From Rodentibacter sp. JRC1 (GTDB taxonomy: Bacteria; Pseudomonadota; Gammaproteobacteria; Enterobacterales; Pasteurellaceae): a stretch of DNA of 64,000 nucleotides. The stretch lies in NCBI RefSeq assembly GCF_020521555.1, contig NZ_BPWA01000001.1:2046001-2110000 (forward strand). Direction: 5' to 3'. Made by a program: the position numbers and the translations under genes. A model generated the notes under the pieces. The model saw only the letters and a list, made by a program, of their open reading frames with translations. It was not told where the DNA came from and did not search any database. Of the stretch, positions 25,934 to 26,780 are shown one piece after another (positions within the stretch are counted from its first letter, which is position 1; each line of letters opens with the position of its first letter).

Positions 25934-26780
25934 TTAGTTAATATTTTGAATAGTAGGATCATCTTGATGCACTGCCAATAAATTAATTCCCATTGGGAAG
26001 AATTTATAATTAAGTGGCGCAAGCAAATTGATAATTTCTTGTTGATTAGATTTTAATATTTCAATCGTCATAATAGGCTTATGTCGTTTAATTGATTCTA
26101 ATGCACCGGTTAATACGCTAAGTTCCATTCCTTCTACATCAATTTTGATGAAATCAATTCGTTCAAGTTGTAACGAATCAATACTTATTAGTGGAACTTT
26201 CTGTGTTTTTTGATAATCAACGATTTGACCGATATTTTCATTCGTCGGACTAGATTGTAATTCTAAGCTACCAAATGATGAAGGCCTATTGTAATCAATG
26301 ATAGGAATGTCTAACATTGGCTGGCTGGCTGGCTGGCTGGCTGGCTGGCTGGCTGGCTGGCTGGCTGGCTGGCTGGCTGGTATTAGGATTTCCTAATGCG
26401 CCATAGATTGCTTTTGCATTAAAGCAGTTATTTAGTGCAATATTGCCGGCTAAGGCATAGTAAATTCGCTCCTGTGCTTCGAAAGCGATTACGTTTCCCC
26501 ATTCCGTCATTTCAATACTCCAAGGAATGGTATGCGCTCCGATATTGGCACCACAGTCTAATGCGACCACATTATCCCCAAAATATTCTCGGCGAAGATT
26601 AAGAATCGTCAGCGCATTTTGTATTTCTTGAGGATCGAAAGAGCCTGTGGACAGGAATTGATGTCCGACTCCATAAGTATGTCCTGCCAAATTAGTTTGC
26701 TTATCAAGGTGGTTAACAATTAAGGTACCGAAGTTGGTTGAGCTTAACACAAAAGGTTGTGGTCTGGTGATATGTTTCAT
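25934..26780 (-). CDS. Phase-variable FkbM-family methyltransferase (currently out of frame)
   Basis: The gene is split across two frames by a tetranucleotide repeat. The first frame (26780 to 26295) begins MKHITRPQPF and holds the SAM-binding block VALDCGANIGAHTIP (residues 72-86). It then runs into SQPA repeats from residue 135 and stops after HSYH. The second frame (26317 to 25934) holds the rest of the fold: DYNRPSSFGSLEL, LISIDSLQL and IKIDVEGMELSVLTGA. Removing one 4-base unit (or adding two) joins them into one protein of 280 residues. FkbM enzymes methylate sugars or other small acceptors; a surface glycan target is only a guess. It has no uptake sequence, unlike most neighbours. Confidence 0.85.
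26318..26380. repeat. Tetranucleotide repeat tract (TGGC)n / (AGCC)n
   Basis: An uninterrupted period-4 tract of 63 bases, 15 full TGGC units plus TGG, in the middle of the FkbM-type gene. On the coding strand it reads CCAG/AGCC and encodes Ser-Gln-Pro-Ala repeats. Tracts of this type in H. influenzae change length by slipped-strand mispairing and switch genes on and off. Confidence 0.95.

What the first reader, a model, noticed from the sequence alone, without database searches (positions are those of the whole stretch)
26318..26380. Tetranucleotide repeat inside an FkbM methyltransferase makes it a probable phase-variation switch
A pure period-4 tract of 63 bases sits in the middle of the gene, not at its 5' end as is usual in Haemophilus contingency loci. 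The gene now reads in two frames. Losing one 4-base unit or gaining two joins them: 847 bases less 4 is 843, an exact 281 codons. The joined product has the complete FkbM order of motifs across the junction. The repeat would encode a Ser-Gln-Pro-Ala linker between the SAM-binding half and the rest, so repeat number would change both frame and linker length. The same locus lies beside a SirB2-like membrane protein and an ABC-F ATPase, not in a glycan cluster. An 'off' state in this isolate, switching in others, would affect a methylated surface sugar or lipid.
Basis: partly seen in the sequence, partly recalled or inferred. Interest (0 to 1): 0.88.

Follow-up and report, generated by a model that had tools for sequence, protein, structure and literature searches.

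The report
Repeat-driven switch inside a methyltransferase gene
A short DNA repeat in the middle of a sugar-type methyltransferase gene of a rodent-associated bacterium very probably slips in length to turn the enzyme on and off, and related methyltransferase genes across the bacterial family carry similar repeats in other places.

Summary
A pure (TGGC)15.75 tract at 26318-26380 lies mid-gene in an 847-base FkbM (PF05050) gene on the minus strand and leaves it in two frames; the pieces match adjoining halves of the FkbM profile. The genome belongs to a Rodentibacter-level genus. A sister species has 19 units and one open 285-aa frame; R. trehalosifermentans has 7 units and two frames; a fourth genome has only an imperfect seed. 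Both halves are under purifying selection (dN/dS 0.05 and 0.04 against the sister species), so this is hardly a decaying pseudogene. A confident model of the sister protein puts the Ser-Gln-Pro-Ala stretch in a low-confidence loop between two strands, where relatives also vary in length. Best reading: a slipped-strand switch, off in this assembly. Beyond the finding: of 38 FkbM genes in 140 family genomes, 13 hold a 4-5-base repeat, at start, middle or tail in different lineages, against 0 of 115 neighbouring ORFs (2 of 115 if two mis-called neighbours are counted). A G12 FkbM gene and a mid-gene tetranucleotide (oafA) are in print, so it is a new variant of a known kind. The methyl acceptor is unknown; near-species length variation was seen at sister loci, not at this one.

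The parts
26318..26380 (.). (TGGC)15.75 tract; on the gene strand (GCCA)n, coding Ser-Gln-Pro-Ala
26295..26780 (-). upstream piece of the FkbM methyltransferase gene: 161 aa, SAM-binding half, then SQPA repeats, then an out-of-frame end
25934..26317 (-). downstream piece of the FkbM gene: 127 aa in another frame, starting at an ATG right after the tract; carries the conserved KIDVEGME stretch
26839..28509 (-). EttA (ABC-F translational throttle), upstream neighbour
   Evidence: NF008775, 1019.7 bits
25584..25925 (-). SirB2-like membrane protein, 8 bases downstream of the FkbM stop; possible polar target
   Evidence: PF04247 E 1.1e-24; spacing
26781..26838 (-). EttA-FkbM gap with an inverted repeat that looks like the EttA terminator (seen by eye; not listed by the scan)

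Best explanation
This is a simple-sequence contingency locus. Slipped-strand mispairing adds or removes 4-base units in the tract. In one third of unit numbers the FkbM methyltransferase is read in one frame; otherwise translation leaves the frame at the tract and stops shortly after, giving an N-terminal stub without the second half of the methyltransferase domain. In the on state the tract is translated as a flexible Ser-Gln-Pro-Ala loop between two strands, which the fold tolerates. The assembly shows the off state. Shown: tract, two frames, family, a single-frame copy in a sister species, different tract lengths in three genomes, purifying selection on both halves, loop position in a predicted model. 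Inferred: slippage during growth, inactivity of the stub, activity of the single-frame form, and the acceptor (most likely a sugar of a surface glycan or glycoprotein, from what is written of FkbM relatives and from the glycosyltransferase-like neighbour in G118).
For: Tract pure and far beyond chance. Related genomes at the same EttA-SirB2 junction: G118 19 units, one 285-aa frame; G130 7 units, two frames; G131 no tract but a CAGTCAGCC seed, one frame of 267 aa; G128 and G129 no tract, one frame. Selection, pieces compared apart: G000 v G118 dN/dS 0.054 upstream and 0.039 downstream; G130 v G131 0.039 and 0.086. Model of the natural G118 protein: mean pLDDT 93.2; the ten-residue blocks of 131-160 fall to 68, 55 and 77 between strands E122-126 and E159-163, while the blocks on either side stand at 98 and 96. 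Best solved match 2py6, FkbM. Loop length between the flanking columns is 8 to 18 residues in 86 of 88 aligned sequences, and 30 and 32 in the other two (P0013 and G118). A 127-aa protein identical to the downstream piece stands for 2 member sequences on 4 contigs, the longest 2,425,793 bases, which is not the window's contig of 2,355,459; so another assembly probably shows the two-frame state too, and a one-off assembly slip is less likely. Length change at sister FkbM loci between near-identical genes: P0121 is identical to G118's second FkbM over 272 residues after the tract but has 8 TAQ repeats against 2; P0140 differs from G042's at 2 of 255 residues before the tract and has 7 TEQNR against 4.
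Against: No two isolates of this species with different unit numbers at this tract were seen. The search with the G118 protein listed no protein above 74% identity (best 120 of 2123; candidates capped), not even its own record, so it is no fair test of how often on copies occur. Two of the three genes with a mid tract are in two frames, which would also fit slow loss. In the wider comparison G000 v G131 the downstream half has dN/dS 0.238, weaker constraint than in the nearer pairs, and the upstream half is saturated at silent sites. Which glycan, if any, is methylated is not known; here no glycan gene adjoins.
Confidence: 0.88

Rival explanations
1. A dead gene: an expanded repeat broke the FkbM gene in this lineage and it is now a pseudogene.
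For: Two frames in G000 and in G130; another assembly with the free-standing downstream piece.
Against: Both pieces are open in their own frames; dN/dS 0.039-0.086 for both halves in the pairs G000-G118 and G130-G131, including the half that is out of frame; a single 285-aa frame with an even longer tract in G118.
Confidence: 0.06
2. An assembly error in tract length: the real gene is in one frame with no switching.
For: Repeats are error-prone and no reads were available.
Against: A contig of different length also yields the 127-aa downstream piece on its own; G130 shows the same state. Even if this count were wrong, a tetranucleotide tract of this length would be expected to be unstable (a rate of 1e-4 per generation is quoted in PMC2651432).
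Confidence: 0.04
3. The off state still makes a working split enzyme: the downstream piece starts at its own ATG about 20 bases before the stop of the upstream piece, and the two halves reassemble.
For: ATG right after the tract and a short frame overlap.
Against: Only GCCA repeats precede the ATG, with no Shine-Dalgarno-like stretch seen by eye; the split passes through one domain.
Confidence: 0.04
4. The tract acts on the next gene as well, or mainly: premature termination in FkbM lowers expression of the SirB2-like protein 8 bases downstream (polarity or lost coupling). This can be true together with the best explanation.
For: 8-base gap here and 11 in G118, with a purine-rich stretch overlapping the FkbM stop; no other gene lies between FkbM and SirB2 in the 5 genus genomes that carry this FkbM at the junction.
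Against: Selection acts on the FkbM protein sequence itself; the gap is wider in G130 (89), G131 (114), G128 (133) and G129 (132).
Confidence: 0.08

Closest known systems
FkbM-family gene ntHI0694 of H. influenzae 86-028NP with a (G)12 tract (PMC2651432; passages seen)
   Same: FkbM methyltransferase under a simple repeat; the authors suggest O-methylated LPS
   Different: mononucleotide at the 5' end; here a tetranucleotide inside the catalytic domain
oafA of H. influenzae, GCAA tract in the middle of the gene, and pgt1, GACA tract in the 3' region (PMC2651432 section 3.16 read)
   Same: tetranucleotide tract away from the start; the paper suggests such repeats may modulate function rather than switch expression
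   Different: other enzymes (oafA an acyltransferase, recalled; pgt1 a putative glycosyltransferase); not a tract inside an FkbM fold
type III DNA methyltransferase mod with AGCC repeats (table of PMC2651432 seen; relatives)
   Same: same repeat unit, same Ser-Gln-Pro-Ala linker, inside a methyltransferase reading frame; in L138 between the type III N-terminal domain and the methylase domain
   Different: acts on DNA; linker lies between domains, not in a loop of one domain
C-terminal phase variation in Helicobacter canadensis (PMC2823697; abstract and one section read)
   Same: repeat late in the gene changes only the tail, as expected for the six tail-tract FkbM genes found here
   Different: poly-G tracts; other proteins

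Membership tests
FkbM family methyltransferase (PF05050 / TIGR01444) | profile match over the domain | tested here: met
   pieces apart: PF05050 1-81 (below cut-off alone) and 88-172 (above); TIGR01444 above cut-off for both; G118 single-frame copy E 3.2e-20 over 1-172
FkbM family methyltransferase (PF05050 / TIGR01444) | fold of a solved member | tested here: met
   G118 model: best Foldseek match is 2py6 (FkbM), E 2e-7, probability 1.00, but TM only 0.44 by query length; by sequence 2py6_A E 3e-5 over residues 192-256
FkbM family methyltransferase (PF05050 / TIGR01444) | O-methyl transfer to a sugar or small molecule | not testable with these tools
   no assay; acceptor unknown
Simple-sequence contingency locus (translational phase variation) | long pure repeat, unit not a multiple of 3, inside the reading frame | tested here: met
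Simple-sequence contingency locus (translational phase variation) | frame depends on unit number, with on and off copies in nature | tested here: met
   G118 one frame; G000 and G130 two frames; different species, not isolates of one
Simple-sequence contingency locus (translational phase variation) | gene kept under selection in spite of off copies | tested here: met
   dN/dS 0.039-0.086 on both sides of the tract, pairs G000-G118 and G130-G131; weaker (0.238) downstream for G000-G131
Simple-sequence contingency locus (translational phase variation) | variation within a species or culture at this tract | tested here: inconclusive
   seen at sister FkbM loci only; no reads and no second count at this locus
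Simple-sequence contingency locus (translational phase variation) | reversible change of phenotype | not testable with these tools
   needs cultures

The most novel reading that the evidence does not exclude
FkbM methyltransferases are a recurrent hot spot for contingency in Pasteurellaceae: different lineages have placed hypermutable repeats at the start, inside the catalytic domain or in the tail of the same family (and perhaps in the promoter spacer). In the mid-domain case the tract is both a switch and a length dial: on forms differ by steps of four linker residues in a loop of the catalytic domain, so that cells differ in activity or specificity, not only in on and off.
Probability: 0.25. 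Interest if true: 0.72.

Novelty: new variant of a known kind. Interest (0 to 1): 0.5.

Why it matters
Phase-variable methylation of a surface sugar would make a population mixed for one small cap on its glycans, which can alter recognition by phage, antibody or lectin. The family pattern (13 of 38 FkbM genes against 0 to 2 of 115 neighbours) suggests that selection has repeatedly chosen this enzyme for switching, and gives a ready set of genes in which tract position can be compared. A repeat that expands inside a catalytic domain without stopping the frame in one species also shows how a contingency locus can be born from a short in-frame seed in a tolerant loop.

Tried and rejected
Naming the species: 20 kb of the 38.9-kb second contig were compared with plasmids and gave only short matches (each 1% of the query) in 10 records of Aggregatibacter, Pasteurella and Haemophilus. 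The genus was reached another way: P0126, named Rodentibacter pneumotropicus, is 100% identical to G122's second-type FkbM, and P0242, named R. trehalosifermentans, lies on a contig of 150,530 bases, as G130's does; both genomes bear the window's genus label. Against a simple naming: P0002, named R. caecimuris, matches G131 (contig of 41,730 bases), which bears another genus label.

Not pursued: a programmed frameshift at the tract. I only read the sequence; GCCA repeats are no slippery site that I know of (recalled).

Where else the unit occurs: (TGGC)5 is present in 13 of 140 family genomes. Besides the three FkbM genes it lies, in the seven ORFs scanned, in HsdM/N6-methylase genes (L133, L136), type III Mod (L138), HsdS (L141), GT9 (L135), a DarT-like protein (L132) and one without a match (L140), and in a GT2 gene of the window's genome. 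L134, L137 and L139 and the second tract of G026 were not scanned.

Limits of the control. Of 116 complete ORFs of 200-400 aa in 72 fetched loci and the window, one had a repeat by my rule; it is itself an FkbM gene (L213, 1501-2382) that my filter missed, and I took it out: 0 of 115. The rule also missed two neighbouring genes with tracts: the glycosyltransferase-like gene of G118, which is in two pieces, and the GT2 gene in L126, whose start was called too late (L126 had been fetched for its tract). Counted as hits they make 2 of 115, p 1.7e-7. The loci L132-L161, fetched for TGGC tracts, were not in the control. The 13 FkbM genes are not independent: counted as about 4 of 38 they give p 0.003 against 0 of 115 and 0.03 against 2 of 115. 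Poly-A runs of 9-11 upstream of four FkbM genes and the G11 of G138 were not counted among the 13.

In print: searches listed no report of a phase-variable FkbM in Rodentibacter; the one paper with both 'Rodentibacter' and 'phase variation' (PMC9146436, listing only) is a periodontitis metagenome study by its title. The held library leaves out most subscription papers.

Full report
What is there. The tract at 26318-26380 is a perfect (TGGC)15.75 and the only exact repeat of a 4-8-base unit with 3 or more copies that a script found in the window. By its coordinates it is bases 401-463 of an 847-base FkbM gene span on the minus strand. The reading frame that starts at 26780 runs through the tract as Ser-Gln-Pro-Ala repeats and stops at 26295 (161 aa). 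A second frame starts at an ATG right after the tract and runs to 25934 (127 aa). Searched apart, the pieces match PF05050 1-81 (below the curated cut-off) and 88-172, and TIGR01444 (both above cut-off). The neighbours are EttA, a SirB2-like membrane protein and YciH.

Where it comes from. The window is part of a 2.39-Mb genome in 2 contigs. Its genus label also holds genomes that match proteins named Rodentibacter pneumotropicus and R. trehalosifermentans, so it is a Rodentibacter-level member of the Pasteurellaceae; a genome matching a protein named R. caecimuris (G131) bears another genus label. The word AAGTGCGGT, recalled as the Haemophilus-type uptake signal, occurs 49 times in the window against 0.4 expected, so gene exchange by transformation is likely.

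Relatives at the same place. In 140 family genomes the downstream piece finds 29 with a match; 8 of these (own included) hold close relatives at 56% identity or more, the other 21 only distant FkbM types. G118, the nearest, has 19 units and one 285-aa frame; G130 has 7 units and two frames; G131 has GNPTSQPM coded by ...CCTACCAGTCAGCCAATG, that is, a seed and no tract; G128, G129, G087 and G088 have none. In the genus, 14 of 15 genomes have the SirB2 gene. Between EttA and SirB2 lie: FkbM in 5 (G000, G118, G128, G129, G130); only about 60-80 bases in 4 (G119, G120, G121, G124); a small ORF of about 180 residues that looks like a lipoprotein, by eye, in 4 (G117, G122, G125, G126); G123 is cut by its contig end. 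So FkbM is accessory cargo at a variable junction. In G118 a further gene lies between EttA and FkbM. Its main piece (317 aa) matches Glyco_transf_9 at 19.7 bits, below the cut-off of 22, and 37 of 140 genomes have a relative, with an open frame of 534 aa in the window's own genome, which itself scores below the cut-off (17.1 bits). In G118 it seems to be in two frames, with a CAGA tract in the first piece (141 aa); the first piece matches two of those longer relatives weakly (E 7e-5 and 0.001).

Hardly a pseudogene. Nei-Gojobori counts on the two halves, tract left out: G000 v G118, upstream Sd 22.0/87.0, Nd 5.0/306.0, dN/dS 0.054; downstream Sd 12.0/78.3, Nd 2.0/302.7, dN/dS 0.039. G130 v G131: 0.039 and 0.086. 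G000 against G131 and against G130 was saturated upstream; downstream it gave 0.238 and 0.103. Four neighbour genes between G000 and G118 gave 0.038 to 0.127 (all). In the near pairs the half that is out of frame is kept about as well as the half that is in frame.

The linker. AlphaFold2 on the natural G118 protein with 87 relatives (83 of the 120 listed proteins, and 4 loci) gave mean pLDDT 93.2 and pTM 0.89. The Ser-Gln-Pro-Ala stretch is the one long low-confidence part (block means 68, 55, 77) and joins strand 122-126 to strand 159-163. The best solved match is 2py6, an FkbM protein, at TM 0.44 by query length. Between the flanking conserved columns 85 of 88 sequences have 8-15 residues, and three have 18, 30 and 32. 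The 30-residue one, P0013, is a Thr-Gln-Asn-rich loop at the same place in an unnamed source. The site tolerates length.

Family pattern. PF05050 finds 38 places in 31 of 140 genomes. A repeat of 4 or more units of 4-5 bases lies in the gene in 13 of 38. At the start: G000 GCACA x24, G118 GCACA x6, G089 GTCA x12, G088 ATCA x9. In the middle: G000, G118, G130 (TGGC). In the tail, behind the domain at codons +203 to +208: G116 GCACA x16, G044 ACAGA x11, G042 ACAGA x13, G136 ACAGC x11, G135 GCACA x7, G068 GCAGA x5; in G044 and G068 the contig ends at or near the tract, so these counts are least values. G138 has G11 at the same tail place (not in the 13). Control: 0 of 115 complete neighbouring ORFs of 200-400 aa by rule (one missed FkbM gene taken out), or 2 of 115 if two neighbouring genes with tracts that the rule missed are counted. 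Fisher p 2e-9 and 1.7e-7; if the 13 are counted as about 4 lineages, 0.003 and 0.03. A tree of 36 of the 38 (the two genes in two frames left out) puts the window's type (G118, G131, G128, G129, G087, G088) in one well supported group (100/99). In the other type the tail-tract genes, apart from G138, fall in one group (100/100) that also holds tract-free G137; the start-tract genes need 1 change but with weak support (74/49). Two long branches (G053, G112) are placed unreliably. Two pairs of near-identical genes differ in tract length.

Mechanism. Slippage in the tract moves the downstream half in and out of frame. The off product lacks the second half of the domain with the invariant D213, K216, D218, E220 and E223 columns (numbering of G118), so it should be inactive (inference). 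The on product carries a loop whose length changes in steps of four residues between on states (inference from the unit length). The acceptor is not shown; for the H. influenzae FkbM gene with a G12 tract the authors suggest O-methylated LPS (PMC2651432 passage).

Known and new. PMC2651432 (passages and section 3.16 seen) states that tetranucleotides in H. influenzae lie at the start of genes with two exceptions, oafA (middle) and pgt1 (3' region), and reports a (G)12 FkbM gene. Type III mod genes with the same unit also carry Ser-Gln-Pro-Ala inside the frame. So the kind is known. What I have not seen in print is a tract inside the FkbM fold, its birth from a seed visible in relatives, and the three-position pattern across the family.

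Noticed in passing
L125:6353-7294 (G000:C1, about 33.3-34.3 kb): The window's genome has a second FkbM gene with GCACA x24 right at its start, in one frame; a protein of another record (P0121), identical to G118's copy after the tract, has a different tract length (8 TAQ against 2).
   Followed up: partly
G000:C1:1394927-1394998 (L126, L142): Second TGGC tract (18 units) of the genome, at the start of a family-2 glycosyltransferase gene next to a phosphoethanolamine-transferase-like gene (latter label by eye).
   Followed up: partly
L118:8161-9736: In G118 a glycosyltransferase-9-like gene (Pfam match below cut-off) with a CAGA tract, apparently in two frames, lies directly upstream of FkbM.
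   Followed up: partly
L183, L188, L193, L201, L202, L203 (tails of FkbM genes): Six FkbM genes of other genera carry pentanucleotide tracts at the same tail position with different units (G138 has G11 there); only the C-terminal tail would change.
   Followed up: partly
L185, L195, L196, L199 upstream of FkbM: Poly-A runs of 9-11 lie between TTGCAC-like and TATAAT-like hexamers in four genomes (by eye); possible spacer-length variation of promoters.
   Followed up: no
window 26839-28509 v L118:9790-11460: EttA has dS 1.06 between G000 and G118, against 0.37 for LapB and 0.17-0.31 for the FkbM halves; it may reflect local exchange of DNA around the junction.
   Followed up: no
EttA-SirB2 junction in genus genomes (L220-L233): The junction is empty, holds a small lipoprotein-like gene, or holds FkbM (in G118 with a glycosyltransferase-like gene): a cargo site.
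   Followed up: partly
P0013, loop after GNP: A relative from an unnamed source has a 30-residue Thr-Gln-Asn-rich loop at the same place as the Ser-Gln-Pro-Ala loop; its DNA was not seen.
   Followed up: no
L132: A TGGC tract (13 units) lies upstream of a DarT-like domain (PF14487) in one open frame of G001.
   Followed up: no
CABDVE010000001.1 (L008): Record titled Pseudomonas stutzeri NCTC11607 has the contig length of G128, which bears the window's genus label; the name is probably wrong.
   Followed up: no
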